From assembly GCF_008795985.1 (NCBI RefSeq), contig NZ_VMHP01000001.1, forward strand, positions 310,001 to 374,000: DNA of 64,000 bases. Direction: 5' to 3'. This document shows positions 58,096 to 62,611 of this stretch, in pieces; the stretch's first letter is position 1, and every line of letters begins with the position of its first letter. Made by a program: the position numbers and the translations under genes. This DNA comes from Marinobacter halotolerans. Its GTDB lineage: Bacteria > Pseudomonadota > Gammaproteobacteria > Pseudomonadales > Oleiphilaceae. The notes beneath the pieces are model-generated. The model was not told the DNA's origin. It worked only from the letters and a program-made list of their open reading frames with translations, and searched no databases.

Positions 58096-59712
58096 ATGCA
58101 GGTACTTGAACCGACCACCACCCCGGGCTCCGACGATTTCAAAACCAATGCCGAGGCCATGAAGGCCCATATCGACACTTTCCGGGAAGTGGAACAGAAA
58201 GTCCTGGATCTGGCCGAAGCCGCCCGGGAAAAGTTCACCAAGCGAGGCAAGCTCCTGCCTCGTGACCGTATCAACCGGCTGCTAGACCGTGGCACACCCT
58301 TTCTGGAGCTCTGCTCATTGGCCGGCTATAAAATGCACGACGACAAGGACGGCAGCCAGGCCGGTGGCGGCATCATCGCCGGCATCGGCTCGGTCAGCGG
58401 CGTGCGCTGTCTGGTCGTAGCCAGCAATAGCGCCATCAAGGGCGGCACCATTACCCCCGCAGGCCTGGACAAGACATTGCGGTTGCAGCAGATCGCCATG
58501 GAGAACAAGTTGCCGGTGGTATCGCTCTCCGAAAGTGGCGGCGCCAACCTGAACTACGCCACTGACATCTTCGTGTTGGGTGCCCGGGGCTTTGCCAACC
58601 AGGCGCGCATGTCCGCCGCCGGCATTCCGCAGGTCACTGTGGTGCACGGTAATGCGACTGCCGGCGGTGCCTACCAGCCCGGCCTTTCCGACTACGTCAT
58701 CGTGATTCGCGAAAAAGCCAAAATGTTCCTGGCCGGCCCGCCACTGCTTAAAGCTGCTACCGGCGAGGTGGCCACCGATGAGGAACTCGGCGGCGCGCAG
58801 ATGCACGCCGAAGTGGCCGGAACCGCCGAATACCTGGCCGAAGACGACGCCGACGGCATCCGCCACGCCCGCAACATTCTGGAGTCCCTGCCCTGGAACG
58901 AACAGCTTCCGCACCAGCGAGAGCTGACATGGGACGAACCTCTGTATCCGGAAGAGGAACTGCTGGGCCTGATTCCGGCGGATGCCAAAAAGCCCTACGA
59001 CGTGCGGGAAATCCTGGCCCGCCTGGCCGATGGCTCGAAGTTCATGGATTTCAAGAACGACTACGACGACCAGACCGTGTGCGGCACCATACGTATTGAG
59101 GGGCATTCGGTAGGCATTATCGGCAATAACGGCCCGATAACCCCGGCGGGTGCTACCAAGGCTGCGCAATTTATTCAGCTCTGCGACCAGGCCGGTACGC
59201 CGCTGCTGTTTTTGCACAACACCACTGGTTTCATGGTGGGCACCCATTCCGAGCAGAACGGCATCATCAAACACGGGTCCAAAATGATTCAGGCGGTGGC
59301 CAACTGCCGGGTGCCAAAGGTCGCAATTGTGATCGGCGGTTCCTATGGTGCAGGTAACTACGCGATGTGTGGCCGCGGGCTGGACCCCCGCTTCATCTTC
59401 GCCTGGCCCAACAGCCGCACTGCGGTCATGGGTCCGGCCCAGGCGGGCAAGGTGATGCGGATTGTGGCAGAGGACAAGCAGCGCCGTAGTGGTATCGAGC
59501 CGGATACCAAGACGCTGGATTTTCTGGAGCAGGCAACGGCCAAGAAGCTGGAGGATGGTTCAACAGCGTTGTTTGGTACGGCGCGACTCTGGGACGACGG
59601 GTTGATTGATCCCCGGGATACGCGTCGGGTTCTGGCGTTGGTGCTATCAGTCTGTCGTGAGGCGGAGGCTCGGCAGTTGCGGCCTAATTCTTTTGGTGTG
59701 GGCCGCTTCTAG
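58096..59712 (+). CDS. atuC: Geranyl-CoA carboxylase beta subunit AtuC
   Basis: This 538-residue carboxyltransferase moves CO2 from carboxybiotin to the substrate acyl-CoA. Both crotonase-like halves are present: SNSAIKGGTITPAG and ESGGANL in the first, and GPITPAGATKAAQFIQLCDQ with NTTGFMVG and GGSYGAGNYAMCGRG in the second. It closely resembles methylcrotonyl-CoA carboxylase beta (LiuB); the atuA/atuB/atuR context favours the geranyl-CoA enzyme. The gene is followed by a 464-bp gap of hairpins. Confidence 0.85.
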   Translation: MQVLEPTTTPGSDDFKTNAEAMKAHIDTFREVEQKVLDLAEAAREKFTKRGKLLPRDRINRLLDRGTPFLELCSLAGYKMHDDKDGSQAGGGIIAGIGSVSGVRCLVVASNSAIKGGTITPAGLDKTLRLQQIAMENKLPVVSLSESGGANLNYATDIFVLGARGFANQARMSAAGIPQVTVVHGNATAGGAYQPGLSDYVIVIREKAKMFLAGPPLLKAATGEVATDEELGGAQMHAEVAGTAEYLAEDDADGIRHARNILESLPWNEQLPHQRELTWDEPLYPEEELLGLIPADAKKPYDVREILARLADGSKFMDFKNDYDDQTVCGTIRIEGHSVGIIGNNGPITPAGATKAAQFIQLCDQAGTPLLFLHNTTGFMVGTHSEQNGIIKHGSKMIQAVANCRVPKVAIVIGGSYGAGNYAMCGRGLDPRFIFAWPNSRTAVMGPAQAGKVMRIVAEDKQRRSGIEPDTKTLDFLEQATAKKLEDGSTALFGTARLWDDGLIDPRDTRRVLALVLSVCREAEARQLRPNSFGVGRF

Positions 59713-59749: not shown

Positions 59750-59859
59750 GAACCGGTTGGGAAACCCTTTCCAAAAAACGCTACAAGCCCATCCATGGGC
59801 GCTTGGGCTCCGCCATCCATGGCTCCGCACATTTTTGGAAAGGGTTTCCCAACCGGTTC
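59750..59859 (+). repeat. Long hairpin repeat, copy 1
   Basis: A 28-bp perfect stem (59750-59777 with 59832-59859) encloses a 54-base core (59778-59831). The core contains two small hairpins built on CCATCCATGG. It is identical over all 54 bases to the core of copy 3, but the stem sequence is different. The core has CTAC at 59781-59784 (GTAG on the other strand). Confidence 0.95.
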
Positions 59860-59922
59860 CGGCAGCTCGGCAGATATCGCCTTTGTTGAGCATGCTTTTC
59901 CGGAGGGATGAGAGGAACAAAC

Positions 59923-59954
59923 GTAGGTCGGATTAGCCGAAGGCGTAATCCGAC
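59923..59954 (+). repeat. REP-like hairpin with GTAG head
   Basis: GTAG at 59923-59926 is followed by a hairpin whose 9-bp arms are GTCGGATTA (59927-59935) and TAATCCGAC (59946-59954) around GCCGAAGGCG, itself able to form a 3-bp inner stem. GTAG followed by an imperfect palindrome is the layout of REP sequences moved by RAYT transposases. This sequence type is widespread in proteobacteria. Confidence 0.8.
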
Positions 59955-59999
59955 AAAAGGCCACAAACTTTATCTGGTAACACCAAATTTTCAGACATT

Positions 60000-60114
60000 G
60001 GCGGGTGTGTGGGACCGGCTTCAGAAAACGTGCGGAGCCATGGATGGCGGAGCCCGAGCGTCACATGGATGTGCCGAAGGAGCGATTTTCTGAAGCCGGT
60101 CCCACACACCCGCC
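60000..60114 (-). repeat. Long hairpin repeat, copy 2
   Basis: A 29-bp perfect stem (60000-60028 with 60086-60114) encloses a 57-base core in the orientation opposite to copy 1. One half of the core (26 bases) is identical to copy 1 when reversed; in the other half the small hairpin reads CACATCCATGTG instead of CCCATCCATGGG, a paired change that keeps the fold. GTAG is lost in this copy. Confidence 0.93.
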
Positions 60115-60176
60115 GCCCAAGCTAAAAAGTGCCACCAACAAAATCAGGCACGGGCTAACATCACCGGAGAACAAGA

Positions 60177-61337
60177 ATGAAATTTACCGCAGAACACGAA
60201 GCCCTGAGAAAAACCGTCCGTGATTTCGTCGAGAAGGAAATAAACCCCCATTGCGACGAGTGGGAAGAAGCCGGGGAATTTCCAATTCATGAGGTATTCA
60301 AGAAACTGGGCAACCTCGGCATTCTCGGCATCCAGAAGCCGGAGGAATACGGCGGCATGGGGCTGGACTACAGCTACAACCTGGTGGCTGCAGAAGAACT
60401 GGGCACCGCCCATTGTGGTGGCGTGCCGCTGGCTGTTGGGGTGCAGACAGATATGTGCACACCCGCCATTGCCCGATTCGGCTCCGATGAACTGAAGCGC
60501 ACTTTTCTGGCCCCGGCCATCACCGGCGACATGGTGGGCTGCATCGGCGTGAGTGAAGTGGGCGCCGGCTCCGACGTGGCGGGCATGACCACCAATGCCA
60601 AAAAAGACGGTGATGACTACATCATCAATGGCTCCAAGATGTGGATCACCAACAGCCCCAAGGCGGACTTCATCTGCCTGCTGGCCAACACCTCCGAAGA
60701 CAAGCCCCATAAGAATAAATCCCTGATCGTTCTGCCCATGAACTCACCGGGCATTTCCTTCAGCCCTCACCTGAACAAACTGGGCATGCGTTCTTCGGAA
60801 ACCGCGCAGATCTTCTTTGACGACGTGCGGGTGCCACAACGCTATCGGATCGGCGCCGAGGGCACCGGGTTCATGATGCAGATGCTCCAGTTCCAGGAGG
60901 AGCGCCTATGGGGCGCGGCCAACGTAATCAAGGCGCTGGAGACCTGCATCAACAAAACCATTGAGTATTGCCGCGAACGCAAGACCTTTGGTCAGCCGCT
61001 GATCAACAACCAGTCCATCCATTTCCGCATGGCGGAGCTGCAGACCGAAGTGGAAGCCCTGCGCGCCCTGACCTATCAGGCCTGCGAGCTGCACATCGAG
61101 GGCAAGGACGTGACCAAACTGGCGTCCATGGCCAAGCTCAAAGCAGGCCGCCTGGGTCGTGAGGTTACCGACAGCTGTCTGCAGTACTGGGGCGGCATGG
61201 GCTACATGTGGGACAACCCGCTATCCCGTGCCTATCGCGACGTGCGGCTGGTGTCGATTGGCGGCGGTGCCGACGAAATCATGCTGGGCATTATCTGCAA
61301 GATGATGGGCACATTGCCAGGCAAACAGAAAAGCTAG
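60177..61337 (+). CDS. atuD: Citronellyl-CoA dehydrogenase AtuD
   Basis: This 386-residue acyl-CoA dehydrogenase has the FAD-enzyme layout: HEALRKTVRDFVEKEINPHCDEWEEAGEFP at the start, GVSEVGAGSDVAGM and MWITNSPKADF (FAD/substrate region), and the C-terminal LQYWGGMGYMWDNPLSRAYRDVR. In Pseudomonas AtuD oxidizes citronellyl-CoA to geranyl-CoA-type product. The length equals AtuD there as I recall it. GGAG at 60165-60168 supports ATG 60177. It sits between two hairpin gaps, 78 bp before atuE. Confidence 0.86.
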   Translation: MKFTAEHEALRKTVRDFVEKEINPHCDEWEEAGEFPIHEVFKKLGNLGILGIQKPEEYGGMGLDYSYNLVAAEELGTAHCGGVPLAVGVQTDMCTPAIARFGSDELKRTFLAPAITGDMVGCIGVSEVGAGSDVAGMTTNAKKDGDDYIINGSKMWITNSPKADFICLLANTSEDKPHKNKSLIVLPMNSPGISFSPHLNKLGMRSSETAQIFFDDVRVPQRYRIGAEGTGFMMQMLQFQEERLWGAANVIKALETCINKTIEYCRERKTFGQPLINNQSIHFRMAELQTEVEALRALTYQACELHIEGKDVTKLASMAKLKAGRLGREVTDSCLQYWGGMGYMWDNPLSRAYRDVRLVSIGGGADEIMLGIICKMMGTLPGKQKS

Positions 61338-61348
61338 AACCGGTGCAT

Positions 61349-61390
61349 GAATTTGCGGGCGGTCCTGCCAGAAGGTCCGCCCGCAAATTC
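61349..61390. repeat. Hairpin in the atuD-atuE gap
   Basis: Arms 61349-61366 and 61373-61390 pair over 14 bp, then one mismatch, then 3 bp, around a 6-base loop (GCCAGA). It has no T run, so it is not a typical terminator, and its sequence does not contain the CCATCCATGG core of the larger repeats. It lies just before the atuE ribosome site (TAGGAGAT, 61401-61408). Confidence 0.88.
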
Positions 61391-61415
61391 CCGAGATTCA
61401 TAGGAGATCGCTTTC

Positions 61416-62237
61416 ATGGAATCATTCTCTCAGTGCGAAACACTTCTGGTCGAGAAGCACGGCCCGACCCTGCATCTGACCATCAACCGCCCGGACGTGC
61501 GCAATGCCATGAGCCTGGAAATGGTGGCGGAGCTGTCGGCGGTGTTCTCCCAGATTGAACAGGACGCCAGCATCCGTGCCGTCGTCATTCGCGGCGCCGG
61601 CGGTCACTTCTGCGCGGGCGGCGACATCAAGGATATGGCCGGCGCCCGTAACCAGGAAGCCGGGGAAGCCAAGGACGATCCCTTCTACAAGCTCAACCGG
61701 GCCTTCGGGCAGATGATCCAGCAGGTAAATGAATCCTCGAAAGTGGTCGTTGCCGTTATTGAAGGCTCAGTGATGGGCGGCGGTTTCGGCCTGGCCTGTG
61801 TGTCCGATGTTGCCATCGCGGGCCCAACTGCGAAATTCGGCATGCCGGAAACCACACTCGGCATCATCCCCGCCCAGATCGCGCCGTTTGTGGTGGAACG
61901 CATCGGCCTCACCCAAACACGTCGTCTGGCGCTGCTGGGTTTGCGGATTGATGCCGGAGAAGCCTGCAACCTCGGCATCGTTCACCAGGCCGCTGGCTCT
62001 GACGAAGAGTTAGAGGACATGCTGGGCAAGGCCCTGGACCGGATCCGCCAGTGCGCACCAAACGCCACAGCCGAGACAAAATCACTGTTACTTCGAGCTG
62101 GGAAAGAGGACATGGGCGACCTGCTGGACAGTGCGGGAGTGAAGTTTGCAGCGGCCATCCGAAGCAGCGAAGGCTCGGAGGGAACAATGGCGTTTATGCA
62201 AAAGCGGCCGCCGAGTTGGGCTCAGCCAGGCGATTGA
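61416..62237 (+). CDS. atuE: Isohexenylglutaconyl-CoA hydratase AtuE
   Basis: This 273-residue crotonase-family protein has the oxyanion pair: HFCAGGDIKDM near residue 69 and SVMGGGFGLACVSDVAIAG near 118. In the atu pathway it hydrates the carboxylated product of geranyl-CoA carboxylase, parallel to methylglutaconyl-CoA hydratase of leucine breakdown; that alternative (LiuC) is set aside because of the surrounding atu genes. TAGGAGAT gives a strong ribosome site. It is followed by a second hairpin gap. Confidence 0.85.
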   Translation: MESFSQCETLLVEKHGPTLHLTINRPDVRNAMSLEMVAELSAVFSQIEQDASIRAVVIRGAGGHFCAGGDIKDMAGARNQEAGEAKDDPFYKLNRAFGQMIQQVNESSKVVVAVIEGSVMGGGFGLACVSDVAIAGPTAKFGMPETTLGIIPAQIAPFVVERIGLTQTRRLALLGLRIDAGEACNLGIVHQAAGSDEELEDMLGKALDRIRQCAPNATAETKSLLLRAGKEDMGDLLDSAGVKFAAAIRSSEGSEGTMAFMQKRPPSWAQPGD

Positions 62238-62251
62238 ATTTCGGTGGAGCA

Positions 62252-62359
62252 AGTTGAGGTGGAATGGCTTTCAGGAAAACGCTACAAGCCCATCCATGGG
62301 CGCTTGGGCTCCGCCATCCATGGCTCCGCACATTTCCTGAAAGCCATTCCACCTCAACT
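62252..62359 (+). repeat. Long hairpin repeat, copy 3
   Basis: A 27-bp perfect stem (62252-62278 with 62333-62359) encloses a 54-base core (62279-62332) identical to that of copy 1. The stem shares only a loose pattern with copy 1 (G-rich outside, AAA next to the core). CTAC is at 62282-62285. Confidence 0.95.
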
Positions 62360-62416
62360 CGCCAGACTTCAACATAGCCGCGACCGTTTTGCAGGCAAAC
62401 TCAAAGAAATGCGGGA

Positions 62417-62611
62417 GCGCTTTCGGCGGGGGCTGTCTCCAGAAAATTTCGTAGGCCATGGATGGCCGGAGATAAGCGCACACGGGTTCGGCCGAGCGCT
62501 TATAAAGCAAAGCTTCATGCGACAGCCGAACGACAGCAATCTGTGATTGCTGGCTGGACCCCGAAGGGGTGCTTGTAGCGGTTTTCTGGAGACAGCCCCC
62601 GCCGAAAGCGC
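62417..62611 (-). repeat. Long hairpin repeat, copy 4, expanded core
   Basis: A 30-bp perfect stem (62417-62446 with 62582-62611) encloses a 135-base core. One end keeps the family's CCATGGATGG hairpin right after GTAG (62451-62454) and the other end keeps GCTTGTAGCG (62571-62580). The middle is replaced by several further hairpins: 62474-62479 with 62496-62501, 62534-62540 with 62546-62552, and 62558-62562 with 62566-62570. Confidence 0.9.

What the first reader, a model, noticed from the sequence alone, without database searches (positions are those of the whole stretch)
59750..62611. Family of four long hairpins with a conserved core and almost unrelated, perfectly paired stems
Copies 1 and 3 have cores identical at 54 of 54 bases, yet their 27-28 bp stems share only a loose pattern, and every stem in the family (27-30 bp) is perfectly paired. 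Stems that change together while staying fully complementary mean selection on the fold or a copying mechanism that rewrites one arm from the other (template switching). Normal repeats keep their stems and vary in the loop; here it is the reverse. I know of no named family with this pattern, though an existing description cannot be excluded without a search.
Basis: partly seen in the sequence, partly recalled or inferred. Interest (0 to 1): 0.85.

Follow-up and report, generated by a model that had tools for sequence, protein, structure and literature searches.

The report
Dispersed hairpin repeats with rewritten stems
These four hairpins belong to a repeat family present in dozens of copies in many gammaproteobacteria and related to a poorly understood RNA called TwoAYGGAY; copies keep a similar small core that looks like a landing site for the regulator CsrA, while the two sides of the long stem change in step, which makes them a natural test of how RNA stems evolve.

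Summary
The four hairpins belong to a family with 43 model matches at 42 places in this genome, copy 4 not among them. It occurs in 72 of 194 sampled genomes of the order and 44 of 229 of the class. It is not nameless: it is related to Rfam TwoAYGGAY RNA (RF01731), but here scores 22-38 bits, below the cut-off of 43. A sister element in another family of the order passes that cut-off (45.6) and scores 80.7 with my model. Each element is mostly a 25-32 bp helix around two hairpins with CANGGA loops, the published CsrA motif. In 277 stems departures are G-U (190), A-C (30), other (95); at the foot the bias holds whichever way the genes point, so one strand's fold is selected. Between close orthologs both arms change together with the flank's transition share, which favours arm-to-arm copying (template switching). 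Neighbours within 400 bp were divergent in 38 of 38 cases, 11 distinct site pairs. Transcription, CsrA binding and function are inferred. Verdict: real, new variant of a known kind.

The parts
59750..59859 (-). Element copy 1: arms 59750-59777 and 59832-59859, 54-nt core 59778-59831; 38 bp after the stop of the upstream gene
   Evidence: RF01731 32.6 bits; R1 112 bits
60000..60114 (+). Element copy 2: arms 60000-60028 and 60086-60114, 57-nt core; 62 bp before the ATG at 60177; divergent partner of copy 1
   Evidence: RF01731 32.3 bits; R1 98 bits
62249..62362 (-). Element copy 3: 30-bp arms with one mismatch (27 bp perfect), core identical to copy 1
   Evidence: RF01731 31.9 bits; R1 109.4 bits
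62417..62611 (+). Element copy 4, long-core form: 30-bp perfect arms, 135-nt core with the first AUGGAU hairpin and a replaced second hairpin; divergent partner of copy 3
   Evidence: no R1 or RF01731 match listed at this place
59923..59954 (.). GTAG-tagged REP-type palindrome between copies 1 and 2
   Evidence: read; REP classes as in PMC3733652; motif in 18 of 38 pair spacers
61349..61390 (.). Palindrome without a core (18-bp arms, 6-nt loop) where relatives carry an element: probable core-deleted remnant
   Evidence: (I12)

Best explanation
The hairpins are members of a dispersed gammaproteobacterial repeat family related to TwoAYGGAY (RF01731). Shown: most elements are a 25-32 bp outer helix closing a 52-58 nt core with two small hairpins whose loops are CANGGA, the GGAs 23-25 nt apart; one defined strand is the one whose fold is kept; elements stay at orthologous sites across the genus while both arms change together; neighbours closer than 400 bp lie in divergent orientation. 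Inferred: the folded form is RNA; the two loops bind a CsrA/RsmA dimer, so that copies act as CsrA sites or decoys wherever they are transcribed; the long helix holds and stabilises the loops and may be an RNase III substrate; a mutation in one arm is usually copied into, or erased from, the other arm by template switching during DNA replication, while selection removes most of what remains except G-U pairs at the foot.
For: Covariation: 23 of 24 outer pairs of a 70-sequence alignment have changes on both sides with pairing kept. Strand: G-U 190, A-C 30, other 95 of 7881 outer pairs; at the foot 35:1 for sense, 33:0 for antisense, 33:4 for convergent and 9:0 for divergent gene context; one element per ortholog cluster gives mean 57.2 to 2.2 at the foot and 18.7 to 8.5 in the upper 20 bp. 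Loops: CANGGA in 270 of 272 first and 270 of 272 second hairpins of elements picked by stem and GGA only. CsrA proposal for TwoAYGGAY: PMC4333381 (passage read). Arm copying: 274 paired Watson-Crick changes on 95 close ortholog edges, 46% transition-type, as in the flanks (790 of 1715), against 110 mismatched states. Rfam link. One CsrA gene in the genome.
Against: No expression or binding data. No promoter enrichment upstream, yet antisense copies show the same strand bias, so how that strand would be transcribed there is unexplained; single-stranded DNA would show a similar bias. The G-U bias is weak in the upper 20 bp (48:22) and absent there for divergent context (1:2, 22 elements). Two of 72 R1-positive genomes lack a CsrA match, G260 with 20 matches (drafts of 88% and 95% completeness). 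The long-core copies 4 and L278 lack the second GGA loop. Single-sequence folding does not form the second small hairpin in copies 1 and 3, and RNAalifold did not predict the first.
Confidence: 0.55

Rival explanations
1. Ordinary RNA evolution: the stem is selected as RNA and both arms change by two separate mutations, through G-U or other intermediates, without any copying between arms.
For: G-U is the commonest departure (190 of 315; 60 of 110 single mismatched states), and the foot behaves like an ordinary RNA helix. The paired-change rate, about 0.105 per pair (derived), is about half the flank rate of 0.193, so some slowing is seen.
Against: Near the core mismatches are rare (107 of 5500) although paired changes are common; transition-type paired changes are 46% (125 of 274; 225 of 586 on 178 close pairs) against 61.0% reported for rRNA (PMC8794818, passage read); mismatches per element are overdispersed (mean 0.39, variance 0.70).
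Confidence: 0.3
2. REP- or MITE-like mobile DNA: a transposase recognises the core as a single-stranded DNA hairpin, divergent pairs are the moving unit as in REPINs, and the strand bias reflects DNA folding.
For: Dispersed, intergenic, copy number from 2 to 45 matches in 12 other same-genus genomes, 38 of 38 divergent close pairs; head-to-head dimers predominate in published REP families (PMC3733652, passages read).
Against: 26 of 72 R1-positive genomes of the order have no Y1 transposase match; stems are not shared between copies with identical cores; pair spacers run from 46 to 208 bp; sites are kept and paired changes continue there.
Confidence: 0.2
3. RNA processing element: the long perfect helix is an RNase III or stability site between genes, as in Correia elements, and the GGA loops serve something other than CsrA.
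For: Helix of 25-32 bp, enrichment between convergent genes over divergent ones (63 to 22); the Correia element has a 26-bp inverted repeat, a core and RNase III cleavage (PMC2649163, passages read).
Against: Loop sequence is nearly fixed at CANGGA while everything around it varies; antisense copies keep the element strand, not the transcribed strand.
Confidence: 0.2
4. Cis-regulatory leader of the downstream gene, as Rfam types TwoAYGGAY.
For: Rfam type Cis-reg; copies 2 and 4 lie shortly upstream of genes.
Against: Of 221 elements with called neighbours 64 are antisense to both and 63 lie between convergent genes.
Confidence: 0.07

Closest known systems
TwoAYGGAY RNA (Rfam RF01731)
   Same: Two hairpins with AYGGAY-type loops inside an outer stem, same strand, full-length model matches; some sister elements above the cut-off; also multi-copy with mostly divergent pairs in other genera
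   Different: Window copies score below the cut-off; second hairpin much shorter than in the Rfam model; the loop's second base is often G, C or A; outer stems long, near-perfect and different in every copy; Rfam type is cis-regulatory
CsrA-sequestering sRNAs (CsrB/RsmZ type, e.g. Aln1a-c of Alteromonas, PMC5864184, passages read)
   Same: ANGGA motifs exposed in hairpins
   Different: Two sites per element, dozens of dispersed copies, long outer helix, no promoter enrichment found
REP elements and REPINs (PMC3733652 passages; PMC3116915 listing and start of abstract only)
   Same: Dispersed intergenic palindromes, head-to-head dimers, convergent over divergent gene context
   Different: REP stems 5-13 bp with GTAG or CGTC tag; here 25-32 bp stems around a 52-58 nt core, and no dependence on a Y1 transposase seen
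Correia repeat enclosed elements (PMC2649163, passages read)
   Same: About 104-157 bp, inverted repeats of 26 bp around a core, between genes, hairpin in the transcript
   Different: Correia terminal repeats are conserved in sequence; here the core is conserved and the stems are site-specific
Template-switch maintenance of RNA stems (PMC8794818, abstract and passages read)
   Same: Paired changes that keep a perfect stem, proposed as single events
   Different: Described there for rRNA and RNA genes; here in hundreds of 25-32 bp stems of a bacterial repeat

Membership tests
TwoAYGGAY RNA RF01731 | Score at or above Rfam's cut-off of 43 bits | tested here: not met
   Copies 1-3 score 31.9-32.6 and copy 4 is not listed; 26 matches in the genome at E up to 1, 22.3-38.3 bits, none above
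TwoAYGGAY RNA RF01731 | Two terminal loops AYGGAY on one strand | tested here: met
   Copies 1-3 carry AUGGAU twice; copy 4 carries it once; in the family the second base is any base
TwoAYGGAY RNA RF01731 | Full model including the outer stem | tested here: met
   Matches run 1-168 of 168 for copies 1-3
TwoAYGGAY RNA RF01731 | Continuity with elements above the cut-off | tested here: met
   One L271 element scores 45.6 with RF01731 and 80.7 with R1; 7 of 95 genomes of the order have matches above the cut-off
CsrA-binding decoy RNA | Exposed ANGGA motifs in hairpin loops | tested here: met
   CANGGA in 270 of 272 first and 270 of 272 second loops
CsrA-binding decoy RNA | Expressed and bound by CsrA | not testable with these tools
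   No expression or binding data; one CsrA gene present
REP (GTAG or CGTC) | Short tagged palindrome, stem 5-13 bp (GTAG) or 8-9 bp (CGTC) | tested here: not met
   Outer stems 25-32 bp in 266 of 277; feature from PMC3733652
REP (GTAG or CGTC) | Head-to-head dimers predominate | tested here: met
   38 of 38 close pairs divergent, 11 distinct site pairs; a resemblance, not membership
Correia repeat enclosed element | Conserved terminal repeat sequence | tested here: not met
   Lower stems 39% identical between own-genome copies with like cores
Correia repeat enclosed element | RNase III binding in the transcript | not testable with these tools
   Only helix length was measured

The most novel reading that the evidence does not exclude
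A genome-embedded CsrA buffer: dozens of dispersed copies per genome, each offering one dual CsrA site at the tip of a double-stranded RNA rod, arranged as divergent pairs, with stems kept perfect by routine template switching in the chromosome. The family would be a repeat shaped both by a DNA correction process and by an RNA-binding protein, and each orthologous site a natural recorder of template-switch events.
Probability: 0.3. Interest if true: 0.85.

Novelty: new variant of a known kind. Interest (0 to 1): 0.66.

Why it matters
It links an obscure Rfam entry filed as cis-regulatory to a high-copy dispersed family with a fixed architecture, points to a testable partner (CsrA/RsmA), and supplies hundreds of long stems in which the question of how both sides of an RNA stem change together can be measured against flanking DNA. 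It also suggests that TwoAYGGAY relatives in Gammaproteobacteria are undercounted at the present cut-off: 0 of 26 matches pass in this genome.

Tried and rejected
Eukaryotic microRNA matches (mir-642 and others): below cut-off, mir-642 on both strands, best read as chance matches to a long perfect stem. Intrinsic terminator: five Ts within 20 nt after the 3' arm in 1 of 277. DNA cruciform as the selected form: it predicts G-T equal to A-C, not seen at the foot. Own sigma-70 promoter: best hexamer scores upstream do not exceed shuffled sequence; other promoter types not tested. Insertion that builds its stem by copying the target: the empty-site search gave 234 candidate comparisons, of which 30 were printed and read; several look like deletions that leave part of a stem, some are clean, and one (L084 against L071) is a precise absence with a shared GGA, which fits precise loss as well as insertion; the question stays open. 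A flank motif GCACCA is enriched after the 3' arm (49 elements against 7.4 expected), but some upstream ACTCC boxes are the complement of a neighbour's ribosome-binding site by my reading; not pursued. Y1 transposase as a required partner: 26 of 72 R1-positive genomes lack a match. Searches for a published description, in open-licence PubMed Central only: TwoAYGGAY, RF01731, Marinobacter with palindromic repeats, CsrA with Marinobacter, CsrA with REP, CsrA/Correia/RNase III, REPIN with RAYT, quasipalindrome, Correia. In these listings and the passages read I saw no description of TwoAYGGAY as a dispersed repeat; two of the 7 papers holding the word were not listed, and supplements, including that of the 2010 source paper, could not be read, so absence is not shown.
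Full report
WHAT IS THERE. The four inverted repeats are in the window at the stated places. Arms of 28, 29, 30 (one mismatch) and 30 bp enclose cores of 54, 57, 54 and 135 nt. Copies 1 and 3 have identical cores. If the strand with CAUGGAUG loops is taken as the element strand, copies 1 and 3 are on the minus and copies 2 and 4 on the plus strand. They lie between genes of one cluster; by their translations these look like a carboxyltransferase (58096-59712), an acyl-CoA dehydrogenase (60177-61337), an enoyl-CoA hydratase (61416-62237) and a biotin carboxylase (ATG at about 62641). These gene labels are recalled; no family search was made.

THE FAMILY IN THE GENOME. BLAST with copy 1 gives 45 matches of varying quality in the 3.78-Mb genome. 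A covariance model R1, built from 70 diverse elements of several genomes, gives 43 matches at E up to 0.01, two of them on opposite strands of one place, so 42 places; copy 4 is not among them. Among 29 own-genome elements, pairs with cores of equal length at least 98% identical (22 pairs) are on average 39% identical in the lower 18 stem bases, and pairs with cores under 90% (79 pairs) 38%. One pair, L011 and L012, is an exception with 78%.

THE FAMILY ELSEWHERE. All 12 other same-genus genomes of the first sample have BLAST matches, 2 to 45 each (at most 40 candidates scored), the 6 of other genera none. With R1, 72 of 194 genomes of the order (42 of 96 genera) match at E up to 0.001, with at most 20 candidates scored per genome, and 44 of 229 of the class (39 of 196 genera) at E up to 0.0001. 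These are best matches, one fetched locus per genome: of L215-L237 (23 loci) 22 hold an element by my pattern; of L238-L266 (29 loci) 27 have a hairpin with two CANGGA motifs in the loop and two (L255, L260) with one. The stems differ from locus to locus. A generic long stem raises the R1 score, so E-values alone would not prove the core; the sequences read do.

ANATOMY. By core alone (CANGGAYG, 9-31 nt, CANGGANG) 286 distinct cores were found in 206 loci (1.22 Mb); 277 have an outer stem of score 8 or more, 266 of them 25-32 bp long, mode 28-29. Nine were dropped before further counts: L030, L163 and L172 are true cores with broken or slipped stems, the other six look like chance or partial matches. 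By stem alone, without a motif, 254 inverted repeats were found, 249 with two ANGGA on exactly one strand. In a third set chosen by stem plus two GGA (277; 5 left out because a loop was not found in the expected range), the loop is CANGGA in 270 of 272 first and 270 of 272 second hairpins; the GGA-GGA distance is 23 (77), 24 (103), 25 (91) or 18 (1). In the first hairpin three inner pairs are kept in 271 or 272 of 272 with several pair types, and a 3 x 3 purine internal loop (A-G, G-G, G-A) is replaced by ordinary pairs in other variants; in the second, three inner pairs are kept in 265-269 and the next three are irregular. In the 70-sequence alignment RNAalifold predicts 24 outer pairs, 23 of them with changes on both sides and pairing kept, and the three inner pairs of the second hairpin; it does not predict the first hairpin, whose register shifts by one column between types.

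WHICH FORM IS SELECTED. If only DNA symmetry mattered, G-T and A-C mismatches would be equally common. On the element strand they are 190 and 30 of 7881 pairs, with 95 other mismatches. The bias is strong at positions 20-27 from the core (136 to 6) and weak in the 20 pairs next to the core (48 to 22, other 37). With one element per ortholog cluster (114 clusters, 200 random draws) the means are 57.2 to 2.2 and 18.7 to 8.5. At the foot the bias does not follow the genes: 35:1 for elements sense to both neighbours (72), 33:0 antisense (64), 33:4 between convergent genes (63), 9:0 between divergent genes (22). In the upper stem it is 17:7, 14:3, 6:3 and 1:2. So one strand itself is what folds. 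RNA is the natural reading because of the G-U pairs, the GGA loops and the internal loop, but a single-stranded DNA form is not excluded.

HOW THE ARMS STAY PAIRED. Orthologs were found by matching both flanks: 762 pairs. On the 95 closest edges of a minimum spanning tree, 274 differing pairs are Watson-Crick in both (125 transition-type, 149 transversion-type) and 110 have a mismatched state (G-U 60, A-C 12, other 38). All differences are 0.147 per pair, paired changes about 0.105 (derived), single flank sites 0.193; the transition share is 46% in stems and in flanks. On all 178 pairs at least 75% alike the transition share is lower, 225 of 586. Paired changes thus run at about half the flank rate. 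Stepwise compensation should favour transitions; for rRNA 61.0% transition-type is reported (PMC8794818, passage read). Together with the rarity of mismatches near the core (107 of 5500) and their overdispersion (204 of 275 elements with none, 7 with 4 or 5), this favours copying of one arm into the other in one step. Template switching that makes or mends RNA stems is described in PMC8794818 (abstract and passages read). Limits: edges were chosen for small stem distance, flank alignments under 65% identity were dropped, alignment noise inflates flank transversions, and no tree was used.

ARRANGEMENT. Elements less than 400 bp apart are divergent, 5' sides facing, in 38 of 38 cases, from 11 distinct site pairs; spacers are 46-208 bp and 18 of 38 hold a GTAG-type REP motif. 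At 400-1000 bp: 15 divergent, 6 tandem; at 1000-3000 bp: 5 divergent, 16 convergent, 12 tandem. The RF01731 matches listed for other genera show by my reading 10 divergent pairs within 400 bp and one tandem pair (G171); several of those matches are partial. Of 221 elements with called neighbours 72 are sense, 64 antisense, 63 convergent, 22 divergent; 29 fell inside called frames and 27 lacked a neighbour (my own simple gene caller).

LOSS AND RECOMBINATION. In orthologs of the copy-2 site (read) L070 has lost core and upper stem and keeps a 14-bp palindrome; L060, L079 and L086 keep only part of the 3' side; L082 has arms that differ at six of 28 pairs, as if from two alleles; several genomes have a short spacer with no trace. 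The window itself has a core-less palindrome at 61349-61390 where relatives carry an element.

IDENTITY. RF01731 matches copies 1-3 over the full model on the element strand at 31.9-32.6 bits against a cut-off of 43; genome-wide 26 matches at E up to 1, none above the cut-off. In 95 genomes of the order 21 have matches at E up to 0.01 and 7 above the cut-off; none of 14 control genomes rings. The bridge is L271: two elements with 31-bp stems (one mismatch in one) and 52-nt cores, 80.7 and 83.5 bits with R1, the first of them 45.6 with RF01731. Formal membership of the window copies fails on score, homology is well supported. RF01731 is listed as a probable RNA of human gut, gammaproteobacteria and Clostridiales in PMC2864571 (table passage), proposed as CsrA-binding in PMC4333381 (passage), and revised in Rfam 15 (PMC11701678, passage).

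FUNCTION. The step from CANGGA loops to CsrA is an inference from motif; one CsrA gene is in the genome. Of 194 genomes of the order 12 lack a CsrA match; 2 of these 12 (G164 with 1 and G260 with 20 R1 matches, drafts of 95% and 88% completeness) are among the 72 R1-positive ones: no clear support and no clear refutation. Upstream regions show no sigma-70 promoter enrichment. Single-sequence folding closes the outer stem in all four copies; in copies 1 and 3 the first small hairpin forms and the second is replaced by another pairing, and copy 2 folds otherwise. The two-hairpin core therefore rests on covariation and pair counts, not on energy.

JUDGEMENT. Real, widespread and under-described; a new variant of a known RNA motif with unusual evolution. 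My odds: homology to TwoAYGGAY and covariation 0.9, selection on one strand's fold 0.85, arm copying 0.6, CsrA binding 0.55; the biological role is open.

Noticed in passing
62447-62581; L278: Long-core subfamily: copy 4 and one other genomic place share an enlarged core (80-nt piece 94% alike) in unrelated perfect stems; the second GGA hairpin is replaced.
   Followed up: partly
61349-61390: Palindrome with 18-bp arms and 6-nt loop where relatives have an element; probable core-deleted remnant.
   Followed up: partly
59923-59954 and pair spacers of many loci: GTAG-type REP palindromes, often doubled, sit between the members of 18 of 38 element pairs.
   Followed up: partly
L062, L064, L074, L077, L087: The two members of a divergent pair can pair with each other as inverted repeats of 57-60 nt, an alternative fold to two separate hairpins.
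   Followed up: no
downstream of the 3' arm, many loci: GCACCA within 60 nt after the stem in 49 elements against 7.4 expected from shuffles; the 3' flank is rich in A and C.
   Followed up: no
L089, L103, L114, L132, L148, L156: Planctomycetota-type MAGs hold the same 22-base AUGGAU hairpin in a different element, in L148 by eye flanked by complementary G+C-rich arms.
   Followed up: partly
L082, copy-2 site: An element whose arms differ at six of 28 pairs, as if recombined in the core from two species' alleles (read): a natural unrepaired intermediate.
   Followed up: no
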